Below the pieces are notes generated by a model. It was not told the DNA's origin. It made no database searches and saw only the letters and a program-made list of their open reading frames with translations. DNA of 64,000 nucleotides, taken from Magnetococcales bacterium (GTDB lineage: Bacteria; Pseudomonadota; Magnetococcia; Magnetococcales; JADFWU01). A program made the translations under genes and the position numbers. Below, piece by piece: positions 1 to 38,215 of this stretch (the stretch's first letter is position 1; every line of letters starts with the position of its first letter). The DNA lies in the NCBI GenBank assembly GCA_015234045.1, contig JADFWU010000002.1, forward strand, positions 1-64,000, written 5' to 3'.

Positions 1-2154
1 GGGTTAGAGTGGGTTGCTAAATCGCAGACCAAAGATACAGACATCCCACACTTAGATATGGCCTCATGGGAAAGCCTCTTGCCCAGTTTAGATGTCTGGT
101 TCGATGTGCAAGATGATGAAATACATCATGTGATTCATATGCTGCCAGCATTAAGTTGGAGCGGTGGTTTGGTGGGGGTGCGACTTAGATATGAACCAGA
201 AGATATAAAAAAACTATATTTTGAGTACACAGAAGCAGTCCAAGAGGCACGTGAAGCAAAAGAAAATGCTGAAAGAAAAGCAAAGGAAAGTGCTGACTCA
301 GAGAATGCAATAGAATTTAGCGTTGAGTTATGGCCCAGCTCTTTAATCGAGTTCTTGATTAAACGGATGCGGACTCACTTTAAGATAAAAGCATACTGTC
401 TTGATCCTAATAAACAAACAGATCCAAATAATGGAATTGCAAATCCTCAACCATTGGTAGAAGGCATGCTCGCTTTAAAAGGTGATCCTCTACATGGACT
501 GATTAAAATTAAGACAATTGATGCGCAAAGAGGTTTGTCAGATCAAGATAATAGTCAAAGAGAGTCAGGAGAGTTTCAATCGAGCTCTCAAAGTGCTCAT
601 AGAGTACTTTCCTCTCAGTTTCGTGCATATTATGACAAGCATGTTGACCCAGAAAAGTCTGTGGATGCACATGACTTGCAGATATTACAAGCTGTACGAG
701 AAGCCGAAAAATCATTTGATAATAAGTTGAAAGAAAGTTTTGACACCCCCTTAAAGGGGCTTAATAATCTTGGTTATCCTGGTGTTACAAATCCATCAAT
801 CAGTATTAAAACAAAGGTCAGACCTGCAAATGCTTTGATGCATGATTCTGCTGTACAGTATCAGGTGCAAAGCAAAGGTGAGGGTGGAGGTGTTTTGCAC
901 TTGCCTGAAAGCTATAATGGGCTTGGCTATCAGAACTTGATTTTAATAGTTTTCAAATTGATTCGTTTTCGTGATGAATGGATGCAAGTTGGCAAAATTG
1001 CCCAAGAAACTAATAGAGATCAATCGGCAGGTATTGAACCGTTACACTTAGTTCTCATTGAGGAACCAGAAGCGCATCTTCATGCTCAGGTCCAACAATT
1101 ATTTATTAGGAAGGCTCACGCAATTCTGTGTGATCATCCTGATTTAAAAGAAAGCAGTCTACATACGACACAGCTGATTGTTAGTACACATTCAAGTCAT
1201 GTAGCTCATGAATGTAATTATAATGCTCTACGCTATTTTAGGCGCTCACCCGCTGTAAATAATGGTGATGTGCCTACCTCAGTAGTTATTAATCTTTCAA
1301 AAGTTTTTGAAACTGAGGATAAAACAGCTCGTTTTGTGACCAGATATCTAAGGATTACCCATAGTGATTTGTTCTTTGCAGATGGGGTCATTATGGTTGA
1401 AGGTGCATCCGAGCGTATGTTGATTCCCCACTTTATAAAAAATAATAAAGAATTATCAGGTTTGCAAAAGTGTTACATTACTCTTTTAGAGGTTGGTGGT
1501 AGCCATGGACATCGCCTTAAGAGTCTGATTAGACATCTCGGAATAACGACATTGGTGATTACTGATCTTGATGCTGGAGATTCAACCGATAGAAGTCAAA
1601 AACGGCCTATCTTAGGAGTTGGTCAAATAACTAATAATGTGACACTGAAAAGTCATTGGCATCCCAATGAAAAAACTATTGATGGGCTTATTAATTTGAG
1701 TCCTGAAGAGCGTGTAAAGCATTATGAAAATGAGCAGTTTTCAGTTGGCTTTGCGTATCAATTGCCTGTTGCCATCGATATTGGAGAAACAAAATCAAAA
1801 GTAATCCCTTATACATTTGAAGACGCCTTAGCTATGGATAACTATGAACTATTTAAAAATATGGAAGGAGGAACTGGGTTGGTAAAAAAATTTCATGATG
1901 TCATTAGAGATAATAATGAATTAGAAGAAATTGCCGAAGCAATGTTCCAACAAATTAGTAATGGTAGTAGTAACCTTAAGGCAAAGTTCGCTTTAGATCT
2001 TATATTTGATTTGTCTGATTTAGATACAGAGTTTGAAGGTACGAAGAAACTTAAAACGCCTAACTATATTATGGAGGGTCTGCTGTGGATGCAGAACCAA
2101 TTAAATGAAAAAAGGTTGGCAGCAGAAGTAATGCAAAGCAGTGAGGGAGGCTAA
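1..2154 (+). CDS. GajA-like OLD-family ATPase/TOPRIM nuclease (5' partial)
   Basis: The frame is open from the first base, so the N-terminus, including the expected Walker A, lies outside the window; 717 residues remain. Seen, numbered from the window edge: a signature-like segment YNGLGYQN, Walker B EEPEAH (354-359), H-loop STHSSH (395-400), then a TOPRIM domain with VEGASE (Glu467) and the acidic pair DLD (Asp522/Asp524). ATPase followed by TOPRIM defines OLD nucleases. The SF1 helicase immediately downstream is the class 2 OLD arrangement, i.e. Gabija GajA, a DNA-nicking enzyme in anti-phage defence. The protein exceeds the roughly 580 residues of the characterised Bacillus GajA, with a charged insert near 60-85. 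The gene is AT-rich relative to the rest of the window, suggesting transfer. It could instead belong to another OLD-helicase defence type. Confidence 0.82.
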   Translation, partial: GLEWVAKSQTKDTDIPHLDMASWESLLPSLDVWFDVQDDEIHHVIHMLPALSWSGGLVGVRLRYEPEDIKKLYFEYTEAVQEAREAKENAERKAKESADSENAIEFSVELWPSSLIEFLIKRMRTHFKIKAYCLDPNKQTDPNNGIANPQPLVEGMLALKGDPLHGLIKIKTIDAQRGLSDQDNSQRESGEFQSSSQSAHRVLSSQFRAYYDKHVDPEKSVDAHDLQILQAVREAEKSFDNKLKESFDTPLKGLNNLGYPGVTNPSISIKTKVRPANALMHDSAVQYQVQSKGEGGGVLHLPESYNGLGYQNLILIVFKLIRFRDEWMQVGKIAQETNRDQSAGIEPLHLVLIEEPEAHLHAQVQQLFIRKAHAILCDHPDLKESSLHTTQLIVSTHSSHVAHECNYNALRYFRRSPAVNNGDVPTSVVINLSKVFETEDKTARFVTRYLRITHSDLFFADGVIMVEGASERMLIPHFIKNNKELSGLQKCYITLLEVGGSHGHRLKSLIRHLGITTLVITDLDAGDSTDRSQKRPILGVGQITNNVTLKSHWHPNEKTIDGLINLSPEERVKHYENEQFSVGFAYQLPVAIDIGETKSKVIPYTFEDALAMDNYELFKNMEGGTGLVKKFHDVIRDNNELEEIAEAMFQQISNGSSNLKAKFALDLIFDLSDLDTEFEGTKKLKTPNYIMEGLLWMQNQLNEKRLAAEVMQSSEGG

Positions 2155-2158
2155 TCTA

Positions 2159-4108
2159 ATGTCTGATCAATTTATTGCTGACGATAATCATCTTGATGAT
2201 CCAGTTGATGACAAAATTATTCAATGTTTAGACATGAATGTTCCAAAAAGTTTTTTCATGTTTGCTGGTGCTGGTTCAGGAAAAACAAGGTCACTAGTCC
2301 ATGTGTTGAAAACACTTTTATTGAATGAAAATCGAGAACGACACAATAATATTGATCTGGATTATCAAAGATATTTTAGGCTTAGAAGGCAACAAATAGC
2401 TGTAATTACATATACAAATGCAGCTAGAGATGAAATTAAGCGCCGCCTTCAGGATAACCCGTTGGTTTCAGTTTCGACCATTCATAGTTTTGTCTGGATT
2501 CTTATTCAAAATCATCAATCAGATATTAAAAAGTGGTTAAGATATAAGCTGCAAGAAGATATTGATGACTTGAAATATAAGCAAAGTAGAGGAAGAGCTG
2601 GAAAAGCTGCTCGACAGAGAGACAGGAGTATAGACTCTAAGCAAAACCGTCTTAATCAATTAGATTCTATCAATAGATTTACATATAGTCCTGACCATAA
2701 TAATACGGACAAGGACGCTTTAAATCACACAGAAGTAATTCAAATTTGTGCTGATTTCATCAAAAAAAACCCATTGATGCAGAAGATATTGATTGCAAAA
2801 TTTCCAATACTGTTGGTTGATGAGAGTCAAGATACAAATAAGCATCTCATGATGGCTTTGTTATATGTGCAAGAGCATTCTGTAGGGCCTTTTTGTTTGG
2901 GGCTTATTGGTGACTCAATGCAACAAATATATCAAGATGGCGTGTTTAATTTGAACAATAAATTATTAGGGGATTGGGAGCGACCAACAAAGAAAATGAA
3001 TCATCGTAGCCAAAAACGGATTGTTGATTTAATCAATTCCATTCGAGCAGACGATGATGGGCTAGAGCAAAAGCCAAGAAGTGATCATCCAGGTGAAGGG
3101 ATCGTACGTTTATTTATTTTGCCAAATAATACGCAGAATAAAAAAGCAGCTGAAAAAAAAATCGCCATCGAAATGGCAAGCCTATCTGAAGATAGTAGCT
3201 GGTCTGAAGATGAAACAGGGTATAAAGCATTAACATTGGAACATCATATGGCAGCCAGTCGTATGGGTTTTTTAGGCATGTTTGAGCCGCTGTATCAGGT
3301 AAAACATTTAAGAACTGAACTTATCGACGGTAGTCTAACTGAGTTAGAGTTTTTTACTCATCAAGTATTGCCTTTGGTGACGGCAAGTAACAATAAAGAT
3401 GAATTTGCAGTAATGAGTGTATTACGGAAGCACTCTCCTTTGTTGGGAAAAGATAATTTTACAAACCAAAATGGAAAAGAACAAAAAATACAGCTTATCA
3501 AAGCACAATATGCTGTTATGCATTTGATGGCGCTATTTCAAGAGGATACTCCTCCAAGCTTCTTCAAGGTTCTTTGTTGTGTTGCTTCAATGGCATTATT
3601 CCCTATACCGGAAAAATTGAAGCCGTTTGCAGTCAATAATTCTGAGAAACAGGAGATAAGTGAATCATCAGATTCAATTGATGGAAAAGGATTAAGTCGT
3701 CAAGAGATTGAATTAGACGGATGGGATAAGTTATTGAAAGAACCGTTTTGTCAAATTGAGAATTATCTTGACTATGTCAGTGGCCAAGGTGAATTTGAAA
3801 CACACCAAGGTGTCAAAGGTCTTGAGTTTCCGAGAGTTATGGCCATTATTGATGATTTAGAGGAACGTGGTTTTATGTTTGATTATGAAAAACTTTTTGG
3901 AGTAAAGGAGCTGTCAGAAACAGATAAAAAAAATGAACTGGAAGGAAAAGATACAAGTGTTAATAGAACGCGTCGTTTATTTTACGTGATATGTAGCAGG
4001 GCTGAAAAGAGTTTAGCGGTTGTATGCTATACAGAAAGTCCAAGTGCAGTTAAGAATCTTGTGACAGAAAAGGGTTGGTTTGATCCTAAAGAAATTGTAA
4101 TGATGTAA
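2159..4108 (+). CDS. GajB-like UvrD/Rep-family SF1 DNA helicase
   Basis: This 649-residue SF1A helicase shows all core motifs: Walker A AGAGSGKT (36-43), motif Ia TYTNAARDE, STIHSF, Walker B DESQD (221-225), motif III GDSMQQIY, motif IV NHRSQ, motif V THQGVKGLEF (about 547) and motif VI RRLFYV (about 605). An in-frame ATG exists at 2141, but the ATG at 2159 has GGAGG 8 bases upstream and lies 4 bases after the nuclease stop, so it is preferred. Pairing with the OLD nuclease matches Gabija GajB, which is thought to act with GajA on phage DNA. It is longer than the roughly 490-residue reference GajB. A basic segment rich in Arg/Lys/Gln (about 140-170) and a charged region at 500-525 look like lineage inserts. 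Confidence 0.82.
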   Translation: MSDQFIADDNHLDDPVDDKIIQCLDMNVPKSFFMFAGAGSGKTRSLVHVLKTLLLNENRERHNNIDLDYQRYFRLRRQQIAVITYTNAARDEIKRRLQDNPLVSVSTIHSFVWILIQNHQSDIKKWLRYKLQEDIDDLKYKQSRGRAGKAARQRDRSIDSKQNRLNQLDSINRFTYSPDHNNTDKDALNHTEVIQICADFIKKNPLMQKILIAKFPILLVDESQDTNKHLMMALLYVQEHSVGPFCLGLIGDSMQQIYQDGVFNLNNKLLGDWERPTKKMNHRSQKRIVDLINSIRADDDGLEQKPRSDHPGEGIVRLFILPNNTQNKKAAEKKIAIEMASLSEDSSWSEDETGYKALTLEHHMAASRMGFLGMFEPLYQVKHLRTELIDGSLTELEFFTHQVLPLVTASNNKDEFAVMSVLRKHSPLLGKDNFTNQNGKEQKIQLIKAQYAVMHLMALFQEDTPPSFFKVLCCVASMALFPIPEKLKPFAVNNSEKQEISESSDSIDGKGLSRQEIELDGWDKLLKEPFCQIENYLDYVSGQGEFETHQGVKGLEFPRVMAIIDDLEERGFMFDYEKLFGVKELSETDKKNELEGKDTSVNRTRRLFYVICSRAEKSLAVVCYTESPSAVKNLVTEKGWFDPKEIVMM

Positions 4109-4244: not shown

Positions 4245-5165
4245 TCACACAAAACTCAGCCACTTCTTGTGCGTTTCATCCGAAGTCCGGCCATGAACGA
4301 TATCAAAGTAACGGGACTGGATTTCCTTGGTGATGGGGCCGCGGCTGCCAATGCCGATAGGGCGGCCATCCAATTCGCGGATGGGGGTTACTTCTGCGGC
4401 TGTGCCGGTGAAGAACGCTTCATCGGCGATCATTACTTCATCACGGGGAAAGCGTTGTTGAATCACTTCCAGGCCCATGTCGGCGGCGATACTCATCACG
4501 GTTTGGCGGGTGATGCCGTCCAATGCGGAGTCCAACGGCGGTGTGCGTAGGCCATTGTTGCGGACGATGAACAGGTTTTCGCCGGAACCTTCGGCAACAT
4601 AGCCTTCAGTGTCCAGAAGAAGGGCTTCTTCCGCACCGCTGCGTAGCGCTTCAGTTTTGGCCAGAATGGAGTTGGGGTAGTTGCCAACCGCTTTGGCGCG
4701 GGTCATGACTACGTTGGGATGGTGTCGGGTAAAGGAAGAGGTACGCACCTTGATACCCTTTTCCATGCCTTCAGCACCCAGATATGCGCCCCACAGCCAA
4801 GCCGCAATGGTGACATGTACTTTGCACGCCGCAGGGTTTATGCCCATGCTTTCCGCGCCGTAAAACACCAGCGGGCGGATATAGCCTGATTTGAGCCCAT
4901 TCTCTCGGACAACGGCCAGACAGGCGGCGTTGATCTCATCTTGGTTGTAGGGTATATCCATGCCGAGGATATGGGCCGAACCAAACAGACGGCGCGTATG
5001 TTCCTCTAATCGGAAAATGGCTGGTCCTTGTTCGGTTTCATAGCATCGAATGCCTTCAAAAACGCCCATTCCATAATGCAGTGTATGGGTCAATACGTGG
5101 ACTTTGGCTTCACGCCAATCCACTAATTCACCATCCATCCAAATTTTTCCATCGCGGTCATGCAT
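4245..5165 (-). CDS. ilvE: Branched-chain amino acid aminotransferase
   Basis: This 306-residue class IV PLP aminotransferase catalyses the last step of leucine, isoleucine and valine synthesis and the first step of their breakdown, using glutamate/2-oxoglutarate. Seen: N-terminal HYGMGVFEGIR, the PLP-binding Lys in RAKAVGNYPNS (Lys158), and EGSGENLF. The length is typical of the family. The ATG at 5165 is preceded by GGAG at 7 bases. It lies 19 bases downstream of glnE on the same strand, so the two nitrogen-metabolism genes are probably co-transcribed. D-amino-acid aminotransferase is less likely because of the Gly-rich FEGIR and length. Confidence 0.93.
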   Translation of the reverse strand: MHDRDGKIWMDGELVDWREAKVHVLTHTLHYGMGVFEGIRCYETEQGPAIFRLEEHTRRLFGSAHILGMDIPYNQDEINAACLAVVRENGLKSGYIRPLVFYGAESMGINPAACKVHVTIAAWLWGAYLGAEGMEKGIKVRTSSFTRHHPNVVMTRAKAVGNYPNSILAKTEALRSGAEEALLLDTEGYVAEGSGENLFIVRNNGLRTPPLDSALDGITRQTVMSIAADMGLEVIQQRFPRDEVMIADEAFFTGTAAEVTPIRELDGRPIGIGSRGPITKEIQSRYFDIVHGRTSDETHKKWLSFV

Positions 5166-5184
5166 GATTATGCTCCGACTTCCG

Positions 5185-8100
5185 TTATGAATCGGACGTG
5201 ATATCCGGGTTCATAATCTCTGTATATACCTTTGAAACATTGGAAAAATGTTTACGCAATGTTTCCCTAATAGGTGACTCTTCCGACAGATTGCACAGGC
5301 GCTCCATACGTCTGTGTAATACCGGATCAGCGGCTAAACGATTTTCAGACCTGTTGTGTAGCAAACGCAGCCTGTTTTCCACAAGCCGATAGAATCGATA
5401 CGCATCATCCAGCACAGTAAACTGTGCCTTGGTCAACAGTTTTACCTGTTTAAACGCAAACAATGCCTTACCCACATTTGTCTGCACAATACGTTTGTGA
5501 GATCTGCCATAGGCGAGGATAAGATACTGTACCAAAAACTCTACGTCCACGATTCCACCGCGAGTCTGTTTGATATCGATGATGTCACCGGGCGCTTTTT
5601 TTTCCTGATGCATGCGCCTACGCATTTCATCCACCTCGACACGGACTTTTTCAGGATCGCGTTTGAAGGTGATTATCTCATTGATCTCATTTTTAATTTT
5701 ATCATAAAACCCAGGGTCAGCCACCACAACTCTGGCGCGGGTAAGGGCTTGGTGCTCCCAGTTCCAGGCATCTGAACGCTGATAATTTCTAAAAGCCTCG
5801 AAGGAGGTGACCAGTGGACCGGAATTACCGCTTGGACGCAAGCGCATATCCAATTCATAGAGACGACCAGCACGGGTTGTGGCGGTGATGCCTGTAACGA
5901 CTTTCTGGCCCAACTTGTTGAAAAAAACTGAATTTGAGATGCTGTTTTTACCATCAGTAAAGGCATTGTCGCCCTGACTGCCATGGATCATGATTAAATC
6001 GAGATCAGAGGCGTAATTCAGTTCACTGCCTCCTAATTTTCCCAACGCAATAATGCCAAATGGTGCAACCTTTGTTTCGCCATCTTCGGTGTGGCAAGGA
6101 TGACCATGACGTTTAATAAGCGTCTGTTTGGCCCAGAAAAGCACACGGGTTAGTAGAGCATCGGCAATGGATGATAGACCGGACATCGCTTCATCCAACT
6201 CGGCAATCCCGGACATTTCACGCGCACCGATACGCAGTATCTCACTATTTTTAAAATCACGCAGTGCATCCAAAAATAGTTCATCATCATCAGTCTTTTT
6301 GGTATGATGGACTAAATCATTAACCAATTCAGCTTTCTGACGATACTGGTTCAGATAGTCCCAGGAGAGAAAATTATCCATCATCTCTGGGTGGTTGATA
6401 AAATATTGGGAAAGAAAGGAAGAAGCACCAAATAGGCGCACCAATAGTGCGAGAATAGGTGGATTCTCAACCAGCGTGGCCAAATAGTTGTGACGTGATC
6501 CTATATGGACCAAAAACGCTTCCATATGACCGAGGGCCATTGTCTGATCGGGCGCTTTGAGAATCTCATGGATCACCAAGGGTGCCAGCTGGTCATACCA
6601 GTGTTGGGCTTTTTCAGAAATAGTGATCTTTCTCGGGCCTTTGCGAAGTACTTCGAGAACTCTTTGGGCTTGTTCCGGGTTTTCAAATCCTGCCTGTTTA
6701 AGAAGCATTGGACATTGCTCGGCGTTACAGCTGAGGATTTCCTCAACCAATGGGTTTGACAGCTCGCGGCTCTGACGTTCTGAACCATGGAACAGCTGAT
6801 CGTAGATGGTATGAACTTTGTCGGTTACTTTTTTTATTCTTTCAAACAGAGGCTTTGCTTCATCATAGCCCATGCGCCGTGCCAATCGCAGTTGCTTTTC
6901 GGCATCCCGTGGCAAGACGTGGGTCTGCTCCTCCCGAACAATTTGCAGACGGTGTTCCACGGTTCTCAAAAATCGGTAAGATCGGTTGAGATGAGACGCT
7001 GTTTCACGATCAATCAGGCCCAGTTTACGGAGCGTCTCTAGGGCTTCGAGTGTAGAGCGGGTTTGAAGTTGCTCATGGGTGCCCGCGTGAATCAGTTGCA
7101 GGCTTTGGGCGAAAAACTCAATCTCTCGGATGCCGCCATAACCCAATTTTACATTGTGGTGATAGTTCTCTTGAGCGGAGACTTTTTTATCCACCATGCG
7201 TTTCATATCCCGGATGGCCTGAAGTGCGGGATAGTCCAATGAACGTCGATAGATAAACGGTTTCAGAGAGGCTATAAACTGGTTGCCTAATGCAAGGTCA
7301 CCAGCTACTGGACGCGCTTTGATCATGGCGGCCCGTTCCCAAGTACGTCCCCATGATTCATAATAGATTTCAGCGGACCGGATCGAAAGGCACAGGTCAC
7401 CGGTTTCACCTTCCGGCCTCAGCCTTAAATCAAGCCGAAACGCCATACCCTCAGCGGTGCGATCCATCAACAAACGCATCAATTCACGTCCCAGTTTGCT
7501 ATAGAACGTCTTGATGTTCAGTTTGCGTTTTCCGTTGGTTTCACCTTTGTCGGAATCGTAGAGATAGATCAGATCAACGTCTGAAGAAAAGTTCAGCTCA
7601 CCACCACCCAATTTGCCCATGCCAAGAATGACAAAACGGGCCGGGCGCGGTGGTTTATCACCCGTTTGTACCATGGGCTGTCCATGTTGTTGACTCAACG
7701 TGCGGTTGAGCCAACGATACCCAGCTTCCAGACAGTCATCGGCCAGATCAGACAGCCCTTGAGTAACCGCCATAACAGGCATCTCACCAGCCAGATCCAA
7801 CATGCCTAATTGAAGATAAGCCCGTTGTTTATATACTCGGATCAGAGACATGACCTGATCCTTGTCGTCAATGATTTTCATGGATTCCAGCAAAGAGCGC
7901 CGGGCCTGATTACCATACACAGGCGTATCATCAAATATTTCAGCAAGAAACTGTGGCCAACGTTTGAGCAGATGAGACAGAAAAATACTGTTACCCAGTG
8001 CCAACGAGAGGCGGCGCTGCCATTTTTTGTCGGCAAACGCATTCCTTACCACTTCCAGAGTGGTATCGCTGTGATCTTTCGCCGCGTTGATAAAGGATTC

Positions 8101-8208
8101 CAAATGCTGGTTTGCACCTTTTGGATCAGCGGTAGTCTGAATTAATTCTGACCACTCGTTTTGCTGTTTTTTACTGATATTTAAAAGCATTGCAAGACTA
8201 TCATTCAT
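5185..8208 (-). CDS. glnE: Bifunctional glutamine synthetase adenylyltransferase/adenylyl-removing enzyme
   Basis: This 1007-residue protein adenylylates glutamine synthetase (inactivating it) and reverses the modification according to PII state. Two nucleotidyltransferase domains are visible: an N-terminal adenylyl-removase site GMGKLGGGELNFSSDVDL (196-213) and a C-terminal adenylyltransferase site ALGKLGGSELNYASDLDL (about 720-738), each with the DxD metal ligands. Length and domain order are as in the family. The start at 8208 has AGGAG about 10 bases upstream. It is transcribed divergently from the yhdP-like gene and is followed after 19 bases by ilvE. No PII gene (glnB/glnK) is in the window. 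Confidence 0.96.
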   Translation of the reverse strand: MNDSLAMLLNISKKQQNEWSELIQTTADPKGANQHLESFINAAKDHSDTTLEVVRNAFADKKWQRRLSLALGNSIFLSHLLKRWPQFLAEIFDDTPVYGNQARRSLLESMKIIDDKDQVMSLIRVYKQRAYLQLGMLDLAGEMPVMAVTQGLSDLADDCLEAGYRWLNRTLSQQHGQPMVQTGDKPPRPARFVILGMGKLGGGELNFSSDVDLIYLYDSDKGETNGKRKLNIKTFYSKLGRELMRLLMDRTAEGMAFRLDLRLRPEGETGDLCLSIRSAEIYYESWGRTWERAAMIKARPVAGDLALGNQFIASLKPFIYRRSLDYPALQAIRDMKRMVDKKVSAQENYHHNVKLGYGGIREIEFFAQSLQLIHAGTHEQLQTRSTLEALETLRKLGLIDRETASHLNRSYRFLRTVEHRLQIVREEQTHVLPRDAEKQLRLARRMGYDEAKPLFERIKKVTDKVHTIYDQLFHGSERQSRELSNPLVEEILSCNAEQCPMLLKQAGFENPEQAQRVLEVLRKGPRKITISEKAQHWYDQLAPLVIHEILKAPDQTMALGHMEAFLVHIGSRHNYLATLVENPPILALLVRLFGASSFLSQYFINHPEMMDNFLSWDYLNQYRQKAELVNDLVHHTKKTDDDELFLDALRDFKNSEILRIGAREMSGIAELDEAMSGLSSIADALLTRVLFWAKQTLIKRHGHPCHTEDGETKVAPFGIIALGKLGGSELNYASDLDLIMIHGSQGDNAFTDGKNSISNSVFFNKLGQKVVTGITATTRAGRLYELDMRLRPSGNSGPLVTSFEAFRNYQRSDAWNWEHQALTRARVVVADPGFYDKIKNEINEIITFKRDPEKVRVEVDEMRRRMHQEKKAPGDIIDIKQTRGGIVDVEFLVQYLILAYGRSHKRIVQTNVGKALFAFKQVKLLTKAQFTVLDDAYRFYRLVENRLRLLHNRSENRLAADPVLHRRMERLCNLSEESPIRETLRKHFSNVSKVYTEIMNPDITSDS

Positions 8209-12569: not shown

Positions 12570-14768
12570 CTATTTTGTGGTATGGGTAAAGACACCATCC
12601 CATTGTGGACCGGGCGGATTGGCTTTGAAGTGGCGGGTCCGGTCCAGATAGATATGGTAGATCATCCGGTCAGGATCATGTTTCCGCAGGGCGAGGAATA
12701 GTTTCTCTGCCTTGGCAAAGCCTTGATCAGCATACTGCTCTACAGCTTGGTGATAGATCTTTAATTCCTCAAGAACCGTTGGGCTGATTTGGTCGGTTAG
12801 CCCGAGAGGTTCATAGATCATCACTGGTTCATCCTTACCTTTCACGCGAACCTGATCGAGATAGCGGAAAGTCACATCATCCACTTCGTTCCTGGTGTAC
12901 TCACTCACCAAGAACATCACACCATACTGCTTGGTCAAACTTTCCAGACGTGCGCCAAGATTGACCGAATCACCAAGAACCGTATACGCCATACGGAACT
13001 CAGAACCCATGTTGCCCACATTCATTAAGCCGGTATTGAGGCCCACACCAATCTTAAGTTCAGGCCAACCGCGTGTACGGAAGTCATCATTGATTACATC
13101 CAGCTGATCAATCATTTCCAAACCCGCCAAAAGCGCATGCCGGGCATGATTTTCATCTTCTATTGGCGCACCCCAGAAGGCCATGATCGCGTCACCCATA
13201 TATTTGTCAATGGTGCCACGATGGTGATGAATGACCTGGGTCATGGGTGTTAAGAAGGCGTTCATCAAGCTGGTGAGGGATTCAGGGTCCAAGCCCTCAG
13301 AGATGGTGGTAAAACCACGCACATCGGAGAACAGCACCGTCATTTCACGGCTTTCACCGCCAATGCTGAACGCTTTTTCACTTTTGCTCATCTCCTCCAC
13401 CAATTCGCTGGGAATGTAGTGGCCAAACATATTGGAGATCTGTTTCTTGCCGCGCGACTCGACAAAAAATCCATAGGTCATGTGTAAAAACATCAAGCCA
13501 ACAATCGTTACCACAGGCGCAACAAGTGGCAAGATAAAGTTGTTATATTTCCAGAAGTAGAGATTCATCCAGACAATAATAAGCAGGCTGCTGATCGTGA
13601 TAACCAGACTAGCTAAAGGCGATAGTCTGGGAATGAGTACAGAAAGCAGAATGCCCAGCGTCAGGACAGTAATCAGCTCAATACCCAACGAGTAATCAGG
13701 GTGATGTTTGATCCGACCATCCAGAATACCACTGATAATATTGGCATGAACCTCGACACCAGGATAGGCACTCTGTACTGGTGTGCTTCTCAAATCCATC
13801 AAACCAGGTGCGGTAGAACCGACCAGGACAACATTGTCCTGCAACACAGCTGGATCAGCACGCCCCGTCAGTACGTCCACGGCTGAAACATAGGGAAAGC
13901 TGCCCTGTTTGCCCAGAAAGGGCACAGTAACAGCCATTTGGTGGTCCACCGGAATACGTTCTCGGCCCAACCCGATCCAACCTAAACCGAATGTCAGTGG
14001 AAGGTCGCCGGTTCCCGCTTTGGTGACAGCCAGTGCTAAAGACGGATAAAGGCCGTCTTTATAGCGTAAAATCAGAGGGACACGCCGAAAAATGCCATCA
14101 TCACCCACCAAAGCATTATCAAAGAATCCACCACCATAAGCAGAACGCTGAATAGCAGTTAGGTTGCCACCGAAACCAAACGCTTTGACAAACTGAGCCT
14201 TCAGGTTTGGATCTAATTCTGAAGTACGAATCAACGGCGCTGGTAGTGTGCCAGACGTGGCGGCTTTCTCATTGGGATTATATTTGAAATAGAATCCGGT
14301 AATAACAGGATGATTTTTCAGGCTTTCTGCGAAAATCTTATCACGGTCTAAAGAAGGTTTCAGGCGTTTCAACTCTCTATTGAACGCCTTGTTGTTTTTC
14401 AGAGAGCCATTGGCCATGTTCTCAAGGGCATCAAGACCGGAACTGGTATCCGGCTCGGCAAATACCACGTCAAAGCCAAGAACCGCAATACGATAGCGAT
14501 CAAACAGTGTATTGGTTAATCGGCTGACAACGTCACGGTTCCAGGGCCAACGGCCTATTTCACCGAGACTTTTTTCATCAATATCAACGATAACAACACG
14601 CGGATCTACCCGATTTTCCTGGGTAAAGCGAACCCGCATATCGTAAAAAACATATTCAAGTCGATCAAGCAGGGAAATTCGAAAAAAGCCCAACACATGG
14701 GCCAGCATTAACAGAATGACCAACGTGCTGAGTAGATGGCGAATCAGATTATGTTTCAGCGTGGTCAA
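12570..14768 (-). CDS. CHASE2-domain class III adenylate/guanylate cyclase
   Basis: This 732-residue membrane cyclase has an N-terminal membrane segment (about 10-28), a periplasmic CHASE2 sensor (about 30-320), a cluster of three membrane helices (about 335-420) and a cytoplasmic class III catalytic domain (about 460-640). Metal-binding Asp is seen in FSDVRGF (about 480) and KYMGDAIMAFWG (about 526); LGDSVNLGARLES carries the conserved Asn and Arg. It should make cAMP (possibly cGMP) in response to an unknown periplasmic cue. The C-terminal tail of about 80 residues resembles the helical tail common in CHASE2 cyclases. It sits downstream of the GAF/HD-GYP gene on the same strand, but an intrinsic terminator separates them. 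Confidence 0.9.
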   Translation of the reverse strand: MTTLKHNLIRHLLSTLVILLMLAHVLGFFRISLLDRLEYVFYDMRVRFTQENRVDPRVVIVDIDEKSLGEIGRWPWNRDVVSRLTNTLFDRYRIAVLGFDVVFAEPDTSSGLDALENMANGSLKNNKAFNRELKRLKPSLDRDKIFAESLKNHPVITGFYFKYNPNEKAATSGTLPAPLIRTSELDPNLKAQFVKAFGFGGNLTAIQRSAYGGGFFDNALVGDDGIFRRVPLILRYKDGLYPSLALAVTKAGTGDLPLTFGLGWIGLGRERIPVDHQMAVTVPFLGKQGSFPYVSAVDVLTGRADPAVLQDNVVLVGSTAPGLMDLRSTPVQSAYPGVEVHANIISGILDGRIKHHPDYSLGIELITVLTLGILLSVLIPRLSPLASLVITISSLLIIVWMNLYFWKYNNFILPLVAPVVTIVGLMFLHMTYGFFVESRGKKQISNMFGHYIPSELVEEMSKSEKAFSIGGESREMTVLFSDVRGFTTISEGLDPESLTSLMNAFLTPMTQVIHHHRGTIDKYMGDAIMAFWGAPIEDENHARHALLAGLEMIDQLDVINDDFRTRGWPELKIGVGLNTGLMNVGNMGSEFRMAYTVLGDSVNLGARLESLTKQYGVMFLVSEYTRNEVDDVTFRYLDQVRVKGKDEPVMIYEPLGLTDQISPTVLEELKIYHQAVEQYADQGFAKAEKLFLALRKHDPDRMIYHIYLDRTRHFKANPPGPQWDGVFTHTTK

Positions 14769-14875: not shown

Positions 14876-16549
14876 TCAGGCGCTGTCTGATGTTACGGCC
14901 TCATACCCCGGAATTTTTTCGGCAATCACTTCATCAATCTGTTCTTCACCAAGGTACTGTTCAGCGTAATCCTGGTAAACTTTTTGGTCAATAAACACCT
15001 GGAAGAGATCAGGATCAATATGTTGATCTTTTTTCATAAAGCCAAGAATCTTCAACGCCTGTGACAGTGGCTTACCTTTTTTATAGGGACGATCCCGAGC
15101 AGTCAACGCTTCGAAGACATCGGCAATGGCCAGTACACGGGCCTGGATACTCATCTGATCTTTAACCAGACCATTGGGATAGCCAGTACCATCCAATTTT
15201 TCATGATGTGCACCGGCGATTTCTGCGACTTTGGCGAGATGTTTGGGGAACGGAATTGCGTTCAACATCTTGAGGGTTGCAGTGACATGATGATTAATCA
15301 CATCACGTTCTTCATTGGTGATGGTGCCTCGGGAGATACAGAGGTTGTACACCTCATTTTCTGACAAAAAGTTTTGTGCCTTTCCGTCAGGACCGGTCCA
15401 AGAGCGGGCACCGATGGATTTGACTCTGTTTTTCAATTCATCGCTCATGAATTCACCGCCGACGTTACAGGTGCGAATAAATTCACGGTCACTGTCCAGT
15501 GCTTCAGCCCGTTCTTTATACTCTTTTTCCAGCTGAGGGATGATTTCAGGCGTATTGGCCTGAACGGCTCTCAGTTTGCGCTTCAGCATCTTGATTTCGA
15601 TGTCCCGTTTGAGTACTTCGAAACGGGTATCCACCATATGAACACGATCATAGATGGTTTCCAACTTGGTGGATTTGTCCACCACATATTCTGGTGTAAC
15701 GACTTTACCGCAGTCATGCAACCAAGCGGCGATCTTCATTTCATAAAGCTGTTCTTCGGTGAGGTTCACATCTTTAAGCTCACCAATATCGGAATCATTC
15801 ACCGCCCGCATAAGCATATCAGAGAGCACTGGCACACGATGGCAGTGACCACCGGTATAGGGTGACTTGTCGTCAATGGCGGAAGCGATTGTTTGGATAA
15901 AAGATTCAAACAACAACTTCAGATCAGTGATCAATTTTTGGTTGGTGAGTGAGATGGCGGCCTGGGATGCCAGGGATTCTGCCAGCTGTGTATCTTCAGG
16001 GCCAAAAGCTCGGACTTCATCGGTGTTTGGATCTTTGGCATTGATCAGCTGAAGAACGCCGATAATCTCACTTTCATGATTTTTCAGTGGCACAGTGAGG
16101 AATGATTTGGAACGGTAACCGGTTTTGGAATCAAACGCGCGGGTGCCGGCGAAATCAAAACCCTCGGCTTCGTAAGCATCGGGCAGATTGACCGTTTCTT
16201 CTCTCAAAGCCGCATAGGCGGCGATCATTTTGAGGTTGGGCTCACCATCTCGATAGAGTGGCAAATTGGGGAAATTGATTGGAATACCGGTAGTGCCACC
16301 CATGGCAATGCCCAAAGAGTCGGTTCGAATAATTTCGAACTTCAGTTCATGGTCTTCGGTGACGGTATACATCGTACCCGCATCAGCATTGGTCAGTTCT
16401 TTAGCGCCGAGCAGGATTGTTTCCAACAATCTATTGGCATCTCGTTCGGCAGAGAGCGCAATACCAATATCATTGAGCTTCTGAATGCGCTCAGCCGATG
16501 CGACAACCTGATCTGCCTGTGATGTGGCGTTATCGTTCATTCCATCCAT
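14876..16549 (-). CDS. GAF-HD-GYP cyclic-di-GMP phosphodiesterase
   Basis: This soluble 557-residue protein has an N-terminal GAF domain (about 25-190) and a C-terminal HD-GYP domain. Seen: HD motif LHDCGKV (about 276), the HHEKLDGTGYP signature (about 450) and the trailing DVFEALTARDRPYKKG. HD-GYP proteins hydrolyse c-di-GMP, and GAF usually binds a small ligand. Between the HD and GYP motifs there is an unusually long helical, charged insert (about 300-410). Two in-frame ATGs (16549 and 16540) are possible; the first has GCGGG about 5 bases upstream. It is divergent from the DUF457 gene across a 330-base region full of short repeats. Confidence 0.9.
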   Translation of the reverse strand: MDGMNDNATSQADQVVASAERIQKLNDIGIALSAERDANRLLETILLGAKELTNADAGTMYTVTEDHELKFEIIRTDSLGIAMGGTTGIPINFPNLPLYRDGEPNLKMIAAYAALREETVNLPDAYEAEGFDFAGTRAFDSKTGYRSKSFLTVPLKNHESEIIGVLQLINAKDPNTDEVRAFGPEDTQLAESLASQAAISLTNQKLITDLKLLFESFIQTIASAIDDKSPYTGGHCHRVPVLSDMLMRAVNDSDIGELKDVNLTEEQLYEMKIAAWLHDCGKVVTPEYVVDKSTKLETIYDRVHMVDTRFEVLKRDIEIKMLKRKLRAVQANTPEIIPQLEKEYKERAEALDSDREFIRTCNVGGEFMSDELKNRVKSIGARSWTGPDGKAQNFLSENEVYNLCISRGTITNEERDVINHHVTATLKMLNAIPFPKHLAKVAEIAGAHHEKLDGTGYPNGLVKDQMSIQARVLAIADVFEALTARDRPYKKGKPLSQALKILGFMKKDQHIDPDLFQVFIDQKVYQDYAEQYLGEEQIDEVIAEKIPGYEAVTSDSA

Positions 16550-33895: not shown

Positions 33896-34042
33896 GTTTC
33901 GCATTGTGTTTTATGCAAGCGATCGTGTGAGATGGCTTGCTTTTGTTATTCTTCTTTCGTTCTATGAATAAGCTTGCTGTGGGGCACTGCAAAGTCGTTC
34001 CAGGGAGTTTCAGTCACAATGAGCCAGTCGGGAACCAATTAT

Positions 34043-36853
34043 ATGAAACGTTTTAAACTTTTATCTCTTGCTGGTGCGATGACTCTGGCATTGGCTGCTT
34101 GTGGTGGCGGCGGTGGTGGTACGGCAGTCGTAACCAATGGGGTGGGCGGTGGTGTTAATGACCCACTCGTAGCAGATGCTGAAATTTGGTATACCTGCGA
34201 TACCGATAATGATGGCACAGCTGAAGATATTCAGTACTCATCTAACACCGATACAAACGGCGAGTATGAAATTACTCTTCCAGCCAGCTGCCTGCCAACT
34301 GTTCTAAGCTTTAAGAATGGTACTGAGGTTGGAACCGGTGATAGCGTGCCGTTTGATTTGCAGAGTCTTGGTGATGAGCCTGCTACTGGTCTAACCAATG
34401 CGTACTCCAACGCTTCTCCACTCAGCATTATGGTCGTTGAAATGATCGTAGCTGCTTTGGAAGATGAAAGCGGTGGGTCTGTTAATATCGCTGATGCCTT
34501 GAAGAGCAGTACGTTTGCCGATTCAGTCAAGTCAAAAAAGAAAGAGATGCAGACGAAAGTGCTTCAAGCGTTTGCGCCCTCTCTTGCCGCTCTGATGTTG
34601 GCTGATCCAGACTTTGATCCTTTCTCCGTTGACATGTCCAGTAAGAGCACAAACGCGAATGCGTCTGCTGGTAAAAAGGCTATGTCGCTTGACTCTCTGT
34701 CAGTCTCGGAAACGCTCAAGTCGCTGGCTAACTCGGGTTCTGCTTCAAGCTTTGGTAATAGTTTCCAAGCCAAACTCGCTGTTGTTATGAAGGCGATTAG
34801 TAAAGACCTTTCTGACGGTGAGCTTGACGGTAAAGTTGGCAATACGACGCTGGTTATGAAAGATGCCAACGGCGATGACATCAATATCGTGTCTCTCAAT
34901 AAAGACGCTAAAAGCAAATATGCAGAAACAGTTCAAGCGATTGGCCAAGGTACTCTGACGCGTGTTGTGGTCAATACAGATGGTACCGTGACACAAAGGG
35001 TCACCGATCTGTCAAATGATGCCGCTTTTGCTTCCGCGATGGGTATTGATCAAGCAGATCTGCAAGAGGCTGGTAAACAGGCTCTTATCACTGCTAAAGC
35101 CGTTGTTGCCAAAGCATTGGATGATGTTGTCACGCTGTCCGGCACTCTGCTCACATTGCAAGGACTTACTGTCGTTACTTGTGCGGACGTAGAAGATGCC
35201 ATCGTAGCTGATACATTGGCAGCCTATAAAACTGCGCATAGTAGTACGCTCCAAACCAGTCTCATCAGCACTTGTGTTAATAAATATAATATCGCAAACC
35301 TAAGCGATGATAATTTTGATGACCTGGAATTGGAAGAGACTAACCTTGATGCTGCTTATGAAGAGGTGGCAAGTGGGTACACTGAGGAAGAGATTGCTGC
35401 GGCGCTTAAAGAGGCTGCTGAACAAGCTTCTCTTGACAACAGCTTCACTGTTGGAACAGATGGTGACTATTCCTCAGTGGCAACCGTAGCTGATATGGGC
35501 GTGTCATCCTCTCTGGATGCTTCTCTTTCAGGTAGTGTGCTCTCCATAACCGAAGAGTTTACCCTGGACACATCAAACTTTACCGATCTCGCGAACGGTG
35601 TTTCAAGTGCGACAGTGCCAACTCTTTCCGTTGAAATGAGTGTGCCTGAAGATAAGTTCGGTACTGCCACAGTCACCATGCAGTTGTTGGATAGTGCTAC
35701 TGGCGATGATAAGCCAATGGAGTGGGAATCCGGAGAACGTTTTGTCAGTGTGACATTTGGTCTCGACTGGAAAGTCAATGATAATGGGTCCGTAACCTTT
35801 GTCAGTAATGCTGGTAGTACAGCATCAGTAGAGTATGCTGAAGCCGATGACTCTGTTATCGCGCCGACCAGCGCGCCACTGACTAATAACATCACCGATG
35901 ATATCACCACACTGTTTTCATCTGAAGTTATTGGTGATGGCCATATGAGTGAGGCAAAAATCAAATTTGCCAAAGTGTTCAGTGTTACCGATGATGCTGG
36001 ATTCTTGTCAGGAGTAAGCTATCTTTCCGGTAGATATTTCTACAAAGTATCCTTCTCTGGCCTGCCTTTGCGCGGCAATGAAGATGGCGCACCGATCATC
36101 AACACGATTCAAGGCTACTTTACAGCTGATGAGCCTGATGACGACACCAAGATTGCAGACAGCTTTACCATTGGTACCAGTGGTGACTATTCAGATGTCG
36201 TCTCAGTCGTTGATATGGATACGACCACAGGTATTGGTGCGACGCTATCCGGTTCTACGCTGACCATGACGGATGAATTTGTTATTGATGCCGATAACTT
36301 CACCGAACTTTCAAAAGGCTATAGCTCTGCTTCTGTGCCGACCATGTTGGTTGATATGGCCACGCCTGAAGGTAAGGATGGTTCTGTTAACGTCACTATG
36401 GAGCTTATGGATAGTGCTGTTGGTGATGATCTGCCAATGACTTGGGAATCTGGTGAACGCTTGGTTAGTGTGAACTTTGATCTTGATTGGCAGGTTAATG
36501 CAGATGGCTCGGTTACCTTTGTCAGCAATGACAACAGCACAGCTGAAGTTCAGTATGCTGAGGCGGATGATACAGTAATCGCTCCAAGCGTTGTTACGCT
36601 AACTAACGAAGTGCGTGATGATATCACCACGTTGATGACCTCAGAAGTGATCGGCGAAGGTCATGAGAGCCAAGCTCGGATTAAGTTTGCTAAAGCGTTT
36701 AGTGCTGTTTCCGAACAAGGGTTCCTCTCAGATGTAGACCAGCTTTCTGGTCGCTACTTCTATAAAGTAACTTTGGATGGTATGCCACTTCGTGGTAACG
36801 AATCCGGTGCACCGCTGATCACCATGATTCAGGGTTACTTCACAGCTGAGTAA
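34043..36853 (+). CDS. Large secreted lipoprotein with a duplicated C-terminal domain
   Basis: The 936-residue product has a perfect lipoprotein signal: basic MKRFK, hydrophobic core and lipobox LAAC followed by six Gly. The ATG at 34043 gives this signal directly and has GGGAA about 9 bases upstream; an ATG at 34019 is possible. After the Gly spacer comes a short Asp-rich beta domain (DTDNDGTAED, TDTNGEYEITLP) like a carboxypeptidase-regulatory or dockerin-like fold. A helical region (about 110-460) follows, then two copies of a 230-residue acidic beta-rich domain. The protein is very Asp/Ser/Thr-rich, which fits calcium binding and surface adhesion, but I recognise no named family. It has its own promoter and terminator, so it is a stand-alone, probably well expressed gene. 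Confidence 0.8.
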   Translation: MKRFKLLSLAGAMTLALAACGGGGGGTAVVTNGVGGGVNDPLVADAEIWYTCDTDNDGTAEDIQYSSNTDTNGEYEITLPASCLPTVLSFKNGTEVGTGDSVPFDLQSLGDEPATGLTNAYSNASPLSIMVVEMIVAALEDESGGSVNIADALKSSTFADSVKSKKKEMQTKVLQAFAPSLAALMLADPDFDPFSVDMSSKSTNANASAGKKAMSLDSLSVSETLKSLANSGSASSFGNSFQAKLAVVMKAISKDLSDGELDGKVGNTTLVMKDANGDDINIVSLNKDAKSKYAETVQAIGQGTLTRVVVNTDGTVTQRVTDLSNDAAFASAMGIDQADLQEAGKQALITAKAVVAKALDDVVTLSGTLLTLQGLTVVTCADVEDAIVADTLAAYKTAHSSTLQTSLISTCVNKYNIANLSDDNFDDLELEETNLDAAYEEVASGYTEEEIAAALKEAAEQASLDNSFTVGTDGDYSSVATVADMGVSSSLDASLSGSVLSITEEFTLDTSNFTDLANGVSSATVPTLSVEMSVPEDKFGTATVTMQLLDSATGDDKPMEWESGERFVSVTFGLDWKVNDNGSVTFVSNAGSTASVEYAEADDSVIAPTSAPLTNNITDDITTLFSSEVIGDGHMSEAKIKFAKVFSVTDDAGFLSGVSYLSGRYFYKVSFSGLPLRGNEDGAPIINTIQGYFTADEPDDDTKIADSFTIGTSGDYSDVVSVVDMDTTTGIGATLSGSTLTMTDEFVIDADNFTELSKGYSSASVPTMLVDMATPEGKDGSVNVTMELMDSAVGDDLPMTWESGERLVSVNFDLDWQVNADGSVTFVSNDNSTAEVQYAEADDTVIAPSVVTLTNEVRDDITTLMTSEVIGEGHESQARIKFAKAFSAVSEQGFLSDVDQLSGRYFYKVTLDGMPLRGNESGAPLITMIQGYFTAE
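35438..36853 (+). repeat. Two tandem copies of a 240-codon domain within the lipoprotein gene
   Basis: Copy 1 starts near 35438 and copy 2 near 36158; the matched SF codons at 35441 and 36161 are exactly 720 bases apart. Shared landmarks include GDYS, LDSA/MDSA followed by DD-PM-WESGER, GSVTFVSN, YAEADD, DDITTL, SEVIG-GH, IKFAK, SGRYFYKV, PLRGNE and a final IQGYFTA. The copies have diverged at many positions, so the duplication is not recent. Confidence 0.85.
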
Positions 36854-37084: not shown

Positions 37085-38215
37085 ATGCCTAATTTATCCA
37101 TACGTGTTTTGAAATCAATTCTGCTAATTCTTTTATTCAGTGCGTCATCTACTGTTTTTTCAGCACCGTTGGATGAACTCCATATTGCAATGAAAGGGTA
37201 TCCAGCTTTACACGGTGAGTTTGAGTTTGCCCTGGATAAAATGAATGACACCCTTGATCTGCTCAATCTGCGTGGTAGAGACAAGAAGTATGCAGGAACT
37301 GATGTCGGTGACTACGATGGTATGCACGTGCTGGGTGGGTTGGCTCTGAGCAGACGACTTTGGATTGATGGTGGCTACTGGCAAAGAAGTGTGCAAACGA
37401 GCTTCGATGTCGCGGATACGACTACCTGGCATATGGGTGCCCAGTTCCAATTAACGGTTAATATGGATTGGTTGCCTGCACTTGCCATACGTATCAGTCG
37501 ATGGGGTAATTATACGCCCGAAGTGATCAAGAATTCTAAAACACGCTTCCAAGGGATAGACTTCGATCGTATTGAAGTAAATTATGTGGAAGATAATCAG
37601 ACTCAGATTGATCTGATTGGCACGTGGAGCTTTGAGAAAACAGCAAGTTTTTCTTTTTTTGGTGGTGTTGGTAGTAGTGAAGTAACTTATCAGGATCTTG
37701 TTGTTAACTTGCAGGATGTTTGCCAATACTCGGTGAATTATTGGAGTGGGTATAATAAGTACGCTGGCTATATCGAAGGCATTCAGGCACGTGGTCTACC
37801 AGGCAATGGTGGCACTTGTCTGATTAATGAAATTACCGTACCGGCTAAAAAAGGACAGTACATTCCCAAAGGGCTTGGTGTTGCTTATAATGCACGATAT
37901 ATCCAGTTTGGTGGGTCTTTTCAGTGGTTTGATCCAAATTGGCGCGTAAGATTTGGCTATAGATATCACTTGTCTGAGCGTGAATCAGTTGAAGAAGTCG
38001 TTTCCCAATTAGGAAAAACAACCTATCAAAGCAATCACTTGTTGACAGCTGATTTTGGATTTAAACCATTTGAACATGTTGGTTTTTTCATGCGTGGGCA
38101 GATAATGTCTAACCAGTTCTTGGGCGAGATCCCATTTTCCTATAATGCGTTTTCAGCGAACCAATTTGGCAAATTATATGGTCTTGCAAGTTTTGGTATT
38201 ATTGCGGGCTTTTAA
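37085..38215 (+). CDS. Putative outer-membrane beta-barrel protein
   Basis: This 376-residue protein has a clear signal peptide (hydrophobic about 8-24, cleavage near VFSA-PL). The mature part alternates polar and hydrophobic residues with many aromatic-girdle residues and short turns. It ends in Gly-Phe, as outer-membrane barrels do. Three or four Cys (DVCQYS, GGTCLI) may form an extracellular disulfide loop. I recognise no named family. It precedes the SLBB polysaccharide exporter by 60 bases on the same strand, so a role in polysaccharide export or surface display is plausible. The ribosome site is weak. Confidence 0.65.
   Translation: MPNLSIRVLKSILLILLFSASSTVFSAPLDELHIAMKGYPALHGEFEFALDKMNDTLDLLNLRGRDKKYAGTDVGDYDGMHVLGGLALSRRLWIDGGYWQRSVQTSFDVADTTTWHMGAQFQLTVNMDWLPALAIRISRWGNYTPEVIKNSKTRFQGIDFDRIEVNYVEDNQTQIDLIGTWSFEKTASFSFFGGVGSSEVTYQDLVVNLQDVCQYSVNYWSGYNKYAGYIEGIQARGLPGNGGTCLINEITVPAKKGQYIPKGLGVAYNARYIQFGGSFQWFDPNWRVRFGYRYHLSERESVEEVVSQLGKTTYQSNHLLTADFGFKPFEHVGFFMRGQIMSNQFLGEIPFSYNAFSANQFGKLYGLASFGIIAGF

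What the first reader, a model, noticed from the sequence alone, without database searches (positions are those of the whole stretch)
1..4108. Oversized Gabija-like OLD nuclease plus UvrD helicase pair
Seen: ATPase (EEPEAH) plus TOPRIM (VEGASE, DLD) followed 4 bases later by a complete SF1A helicase. Known: this pairing is Gabija, an anti-phage system. Odd: both proteins are clearly longer than the characterised pair, with charged inserts in each. The system may be a distinct class 2 OLD variant with altered sensing.
Basis: partly seen in the sequence, partly recalled or inferred. Interest (0 to 1): 0.6.

Follow-up and report, generated by a model that had tools for sequence, protein, structure and literature searches.

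The report
Ordinary long-form Gabija phage-defence operon
This is a standard two-gene bacterial anti-virus system (Gabija: a nuclease plus a helicase) of a long-protein type found in many bacteria; the only unusual thing, its size, is normal for that type, and its missing beginning lies at the end of another contig of the same genome.

Summary
Window 1-2154 encodes a 5'-open OLD-family ATPase-TOPRIM protein. Four bases later, 2159-4108 encodes a complete SF1A helicase. It is Gabija by every test run here: best matches are PADLOC GajA (801 bits) and GajB (798 bits), both nearly end to end.

The 5' end is missing because the contig starts inside gajA. The first 61 codons, with the Walker A motif GANNSGKT, are the last 185 bases of contig C58. 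Conserved gene order confirms that the two contigs adjoin: six relatives of the same order have glnE-ilvE-ettA with nothing, or at most about 1 kb, between ilvE and ettA. Here the low-GC Gabija cassette (0.36-0.38 against 0.47) sits between ilvE and ettA.

'Oversized' holds only against the B. cereus VD045 pair (578/493 aa). Homologues across Bacteroidota, Bacillota, Chlorobiota, Pseudomonadota and a Parcubacteria bin have GajA of 726-784 aa and GajB of 620-653 aa. Short and long forms separate with full support in both trees. Only insertions of 7-12 residues are peculiar to this copy. Nothing points to altered sensing. The genome carries a second, divergent Gabija on another contig. All full-length GajA structures found are from B. 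cereus.

The parts
1..2154 (+). gajA, 717 codons, 5' end cut by the contig start: rest of the ABC ATPase domain and the dimerisation insert, then the TOPRIM nuclease domain. The first 61 codons are on contig C58:24031-24215; about 8 codons fall in the gap; full protein about 786 aa.
   Evidence: PADLOC PDLC00093 GajA 801 bits, model 75-730/736; Pfam AAA_15 and OLD-like_TOPRIM; model positions 1-61 on C58
1048..1077 (+). Walker B of GajA, LVLIEEPEAH
   Evidence: position; EEPEAH invariant in 19 homologues; aligned with the B. cereus GajA Walker B
1183..1200 (+). H-loop STHSSH (equivalent of B. cereus H320)
1396..1413 (+). TOPRIM motif VEGASE (equivalent of E379 and E383)
   Evidence: aligned to solved GajA, BpOLD and XccOLD
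1561..1572 (+). TOPRIM motif TDLD (equivalent of D432 and D434)
1813..1989 (+). C-terminal TOPRIM catalytic segments: TFEDA and the invariant Lys of NLKAKF (probable equivalents of the D511/D513 and K541 region)
   Evidence: invariant E607 and K660; equivalence inferred from order and conservation
178..336 (+). Charged helical stretch in the ATPase N-lobe (GajA residues 60-112), about 7 residues longer than in any of the 18 homologues
2159..4108 (+). gajB, 649 aa UvrD/Rep/PcrA-like SF1A helicase (ATG start; GTG at 2141 also possible)
   Evidence: PADLOC PDLC00111 GajB 798 bits, model 4-623/625; motifs; fold matches UvrD/Rep/PcrA and B. cereus GajB
2816..2836 (+). Walker B / motif II VDESQDT of GajB
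4245..5165 (-). ilvE-type aminotransferase, right-hand neighbour of the cassette; with glnE (5185-8208) and ettA on C58 it forms the conserved cluster into which Gabija is inserted. Gene names are inferred from the sequences, not from a family search.
   Evidence: conserved order glnE-ilvE-ettA in six relatives

Best explanation
A complete long-form Gabija operon, gajA-gajB, acquired horizontally as a compact cassette of about 5 kb between ilvE and ettA, and split here only by a contig break. GajA (about 786 aa) is a class 2 OLD protein: its ABC ATPase domain binds nucleotide and, through its dimerisation insert, builds a GajA tetramer, and its C-terminal TOPRIM domain cuts DNA with two metal ions. 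GajB (649 aa), a UvrD/Rep/PcrA-like helicase, docks on the GajA ATPase lobes to give a GajA4-GajB4 complex that cleaves invading phage DNA. Shown here: the domains, the catalytic motifs, the operon, the contig join and the insertion site. Inferred from the B. cereus and P. aeruginosa systems: assembly, nuclease and helicase activity, and phage defence. The trigger is not settled in the literature: nucleotide depletion (PMC8136825), or linear DNA ends not occupied by RecBCD (PMC12407980).
For: PADLOC GajA 801 bits and GajB 798 bits, near full length. Pfam AAA_15, OLD-like_TOPRIM, UvrD-helicase. Walker A on C58, the only such fragment in the genome ending at a contig edge. glnE-ilvE-ettA order with ilvE and ettA 80-100 bp apart in four relatives and about 0.9-1.1 kb apart in two. 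In 18 of 19 homologues gajA is intact and gajB directly follows; the 19th (L019) has a disrupted gajA frame but keeps gajB. Fold search of the GajA model: GajA and OLD entries fill the top ranks, followed by retron-Eco8. GajB model matches UvrD/Rep/PcrA and B. cereus GajB. Profile-profile matches to short GajA (99.4%) and short GajB (99.4%). GC 0.36-0.38 against 0.47.
Against: No activity was tested. About 22 bases between C58 and C40 are unseen, and the last two bases of C58 (AT) do not fit the conserved Asn codon at that place, so a frameshift in the gap is not excluded. The GajA model is of moderate quality (mean pLDDT 69, pTM 0.50), so its fold matches are topological only.
Confidence: 0.93

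Rival explanations
1. A functionally distinct variant: the long form uses its enlarged GajA ATPase lobe and full-size helicase to sense something other than what short-form Gabija senses.
For: Long and short forms separate with 100/100 support in both GajA and GajB trees, and both proteins are long or short together. Most extra GajA residues (118 of 157 in L039; about 134 of about 195 in the window) lie between Walker A and Walker B, the region that in B. cereus holds the dimerisation insert and contacts GajB (PMC10822852). GajB's profile finds PcrA, UvrD and Rep but no solved GajB.
Against: Catalytic and ATP-binding motifs are all kept. Operon structure is the same. Sensing has not been compared between forms. 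Insert location is inferred from motif spacing, not from a confident model.
Confidence: 0.1
2. A different OLD-helicase or OLD system (class 1 OLD beside an unrelated helicase, PARIS AriA, or a retron-Eco8 effector).
For: Weaker matches to AriA (127 bits) and to the retron Eco8 effector (36 bits against a cut-off of 250).
Against: GajA and GajB matches are hundreds of bits stronger. A UvrD-like helicase is adjacent in all 19 homologues. No RNA family is found in the window. No reverse transcriptase was found among the neighbours examined.
Confidence: 0.02
3. A broken relic: gajA is truly truncated or interrupted at the C58/C40 junction, for example by an insertion sequence.
For: The gene is split between two contigs, and about 22 bases are unaccounted for.
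Against: Both halves are open and in the expected register, and all catalytic motifs are intact. An insertion sequence would duplicate bases rather than remove about 22. Gene order fits a simple join.
Confidence: 0.04

Closest known systems
Gabija, PADLOC GajA PDLC00093/PDLC00095 and GajB PDLC00111/PDLC00143
   Same: Both proteins match end to end (75-730/736 and 4-623/625), with gene order gajA-gajB.
   Different: Nothing beyond ordinary divergence and insertions of 7-12 residues.
Long-form Gabija of Agrobacterium tumefaciens plasmid pAt15-1187-1-2a2 (GajA 763 aa, GajB 634 aa) and of same-order genome G019 (748/623 aa)
   Same: 47.6% GajA identity, the same length class, the same operon. G019 GajB is the sister of the window GajB (98/99).
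   Different: Different insertion sites. Window GajA is about 20-40 residues longer overall.
Gabija of Bacillus cereus VD045 (GajA 578 aa, GajB 493 aa; PDB 8SM3 and others)
   Same: Class 2 OLD ATPase-TOPRIM with the same Walker, H-loop, VEGxSE and DxD motifs; adjacent SF1A helicase (PMC10781630, PMC10822852).
   Different: Short form. About 200 fewer residues in GajA, mostly between Walker A and Walker B, and about 155 fewer in GajB. Its close relatives form a separate branch with 100/100 support.
Class 2 OLD nucleases BpOLD and XccOLD (PDB 6NK8, 6NJV)
   Same: TOPRIM domain homologous (E = 2.7e-06 to 8e-06).
   Different: Only their isolated TOPRIM domains are solved. They act as non-specific nucleases in vitro (PMC10568477).
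Retron-Eco8 effector and PARIS AriA
   Same: The same OLD-type ATPase superfamily.
   Different: Much weaker scores, and different partner genes.

Membership tests
Gabija (class 2 OLD) | GajA: N-terminal ABC ATPase with Walker A | tested here: met
   GANNSGKT at the end of contig C58, model positions 1-61; adjacency of C58 and C40 supported by glnE-ilvE-ettA order. About 22 bases between are unseen.
Gabija (class 2 OLD) | GajA: Walker B and H-loop | tested here: met
   LIEEPEAH and STHSSH, conserved in the alignment and aligned to B. cereus GajA
Gabija (class 2 OLD) | GajA: OLD-type TOPRIM with the VEG-SE and DxD catalytic set | tested here: met
   Pfam OLD-like_TOPRIM 67.8 bits; VEGASE and TDLD
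Gabija (class 2 OLD) | GajB: adjacent UvrD/PcrA/Rep-like SF1 helicase with intact motifs | tested here: met
   gajB starts 4 bases after gajA; PADLOC GajB 798 bits; all motifs present
Gabija (class 2 OLD) | Best match to GajA/GajB models rather than to other OLD systems | tested here: met
   801 and 798 bits against 127 (AriA) and 36 (retron Eco8 effector)
Gabija (class 2 OLD) | GajA4-GajB4 assembly | not testable with these tools
   Complex modelling was not available; inferred from B. cereus structures
Gabija (class 2 OLD) | Anti-phage activity and nucleotide- or RecBCD-linked triggering | not testable with these tools
   Needs experiments
Retron-Eco8 (class 3 OLD) | Reverse transcriptase and retron ncRNA beside the OLD gene | tested here: not met
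   The neighbours are gajB, ilvE and glnE on one side and ettA on the other; no Rfam family in the window
PARIS (class 4 OLD) | AriA as best match, with AriB adjacent | tested here: not met
   AriA 127 bits against GajA 801 bits; the partner is a helicase

The most novel reading that the evidence does not exclude
Long-form Gabija is a mechanistically separate branch. Its enlarged ATPase/dimerisation lobe in GajA and its full-size, UvrD-like GajB evolved together and give a complex whose docking or activation differs from the B. cereus short form. Phage inhibitors such as Gad1, which grip the short-form dimerisation domain, might then not work on it.
Probability: 0.15. Interest if true: 0.45.

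Novelty: new member of a known kind. Interest (0 to 1): 0.15.

Why it matters
Two points are of modest use. The family falls into a short and a long lineage in which GajA and GajB change size together, and all the full-length GajA structures found here come from one short-form system. The locus also has a clear insertion site (glnE-ilvE-[Gabija]-ettA) with unoccupied counterparts in related genomes, which shows how such a cassette moves without a defence island.

Tried and rejected
(1) Another OLD system (retron Eco8, PARIS, class 1 OLD): rejected on scores and partner gene. (2) Truncated pseudogene: unlikely, because the missing part is on C58 and gene order joins the contigs. (3) Placing the inserts on an AlphaFold model: the GajA model, lacking its first 69 residues, reached only pLDDT 69 and pTM 0.50 with global TM-scores near 0.2 to solved GajA, so I used motif spacing instead. 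(4) Single-sequence search of GajB against solved structures: no hit. The profile found PcrA, UvrD and Rep but not B. cereus GajB; Foldseek did find it. (6) Papers on GajA diversity or long forms: the searches of the library showed none that separates long from short Gabija.

Full report
Observation. The window is G000:C40:1-64000, so it begins at base 1 of a contig. A 717-codon open frame without a start runs from 1 to 2154. After TAA and four bases (TCTA), an ATG at 2159 opens a 649-aa frame ending at 4108.

Identity. Pfam gives AAA_15 and OLD-like_TOPRIM for the first protein and UvrD-helicase for the second. PADLOC gives GajA PDLC00093 with 801 bits over model positions 75-730 of 736, and GajB PDLC00111 with 798 bits over 4-623 of 625. 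Other OLD systems score far lower: AriA 127 bits, retron Eco8 effector 36 bits against a cut-off of 250. Foldseek of the predicted GajA returns GajA and OLD entries first, and predicted GajB returns UvrD/Rep/PcrA and B. cereus GajB. The GajA model itself is only moderate (pLDDT 69).

The missing start. A search of the whole genome with the GajA model finds positions 1-61 at C58:24031-24213, two bases before the end of that contig. It reads MRISYVEIQNFRRLKSVRIDFSEETTIFVGANNSGKTTAM..., with Walker A. Homologues read FTLSNWxxINxIGxxW across the break. C58 ends in FTLS and C40 begins with GLEW, so about 8 codons (about 22 bases) are unseen. The last two bases of C58 (AT) do not fit the conserved Asn codon, a small unresolved point. 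The full protein would be about 786 aa.

Independent support that the contigs adjoin. C58 carries ettA on the minus strand just left of gajA, and C40 carries ilvE and glnE on the minus strand just right of gajB. In six genomes of the same order glnE, ilvE and ettA lie in this order on one strand. The gap between ilvE and ettA is 80-100 bp in four of them and about 0.9-1.1 kb in two. The Gabija cassette therefore sits between ilvE and ettA. Its GC content, 0.36-0.38 against 0.47 for the rest of the window, fits acquisition from elsewhere. The other window genes examined (pdxJ, recA, topoisomerase IV subunit A, ftsK, RNase J and others) are not defence genes, so it does not appear to be in a defence island. 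The names ilvE, glnE and ettA are my reading of the sequences.

Is it oversized? Only against B. cereus VD045 (578 and 493 aa; PMC10822852). Nineteen relatives from public genomes (42-47% identical) were fetched. Eighteen have an intact gajA of 726-778 aa, and all 19 have gajB of 620-639 aa immediately downstream; in L019 the gajA frame is disrupted. Plasmid-borne members have 763/634 aa (Agrobacterium), 744/653 (Roseovarius), 784/650 (P. aeruginosa), 775/632 (Sinorhizobium) and 758/642 (Sphingomonas). Short-form systems found with B. cereus GajA segments have 569-591 and 502-550 aa. Trees of both proteins separate short from long with 100/100 support. Profile comparison confirms homology of the two forms.

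Where the extra residues are. Taking the same-order homologue L039 (748 aa) against the Paenibacillus short form (591 aa), Walker A to Walker B is 118 residues longer, Walker B to VEG 24, VEG to DxD 1, and the C-terminus 13 (positions; my subtraction). The window differs in the same places, with about 134 extra before Walker B. So most of the growth is in the ATPase N-lobe and dimerisation region, and the TOPRIM core is unchanged. Segments peculiar to this copy are small: about 7 residues in the charged helix at GajA 78-97, about 8 near GajA 670, and 12 in GajB near residue 60.

Mechanism. By homology, GajA tetramerises through its ATPase/dimerisation region, GajB docks on the ATPase lobe, and the complex cuts phage DNA through the TOPRIM site (PMC10781630, PMC10822852). 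Two triggers are proposed: relief of nucleotide inhibition (PMC8136825), and linear DNA not occupied by RecBCD (PMC12407980). Nothing in this sequence decides between them, and nothing shows altered sensing.

Second system. The same genome has another intact gajA-gajB pair at C32:230-4031 (666/584 aa by the longest frames), matching PDLC00063 (885 bits) and PDLC00113 (804 bits), only about 27-30% identical to the window pair. It lies on a separate long branch within the non-short side of both trees.

Verdict. The finding is real and correctly named, but ordinary: a new member of a known kind, in a long-form lineage already covered by existing models. Remaining interest lies in the long form as a structurally unsampled branch.

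Noticed in passing
L029 230-4031 (G000:C32): A second intact Gabija operon in the same genome, of a different subfamily (GajA 666 aa PDLC00063, GajB 584 aa PDLC00113).
   Followed up: partly
window 4245-8208 and L028 17630-19309; counterpart sites in L070-L075: Conserved glnE-ilvE-ettA cluster used as an insertion site for the Gabija cassette; ilvE and ettA are 80-100 bp apart in four relatives, and about 0.9-1.1 kb apart in two relatives where the content between was not examined.
   Followed up: partly
G010 (contig of 4,719,581 bases): One same-order relative is a single 4.72 Mb contig, which by memory matches the size of Magnetococcus marinus MC-1, so the window genome is probably from Magnetococcales; not tested.
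   Followed up: no
L049 4001-5989 (MT835554.1): An unverified phage-labelled scaffold from human faeces carries a 41.6% identical GajA, so long-form Gabija may ride on prophages, or the label is wrong.
   Followed up: no
OR790969.1 2135-3556 (Pseudomonas phage PfAC02b): A filamentous Pf phage record carries a GajA-like endonuclease with a helicase annotated in the same place (25.7% identity to the window GajA).
   Followed up: no
L019 486-2714 (Mucilaginibacter pallidiroseus) and L045 5682-6542 (G036): gajA frames in these two relatives are broken or shortened while other members are intact: possible decaying copies or sequencing errors.
   Followed up: no
window 33974-36853 and 37085-38215: Two large neighbouring open frames (959 and 376 aa) without any Pfam match, upstream of an SLBB/polysaccharide-export protein.
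   Followed up: no
window 12570-14768: CHASE2-adenylate/guanylate cyclase sensor protein next to a GAF-HD domain protein (14876-16549).
   Followed up: no
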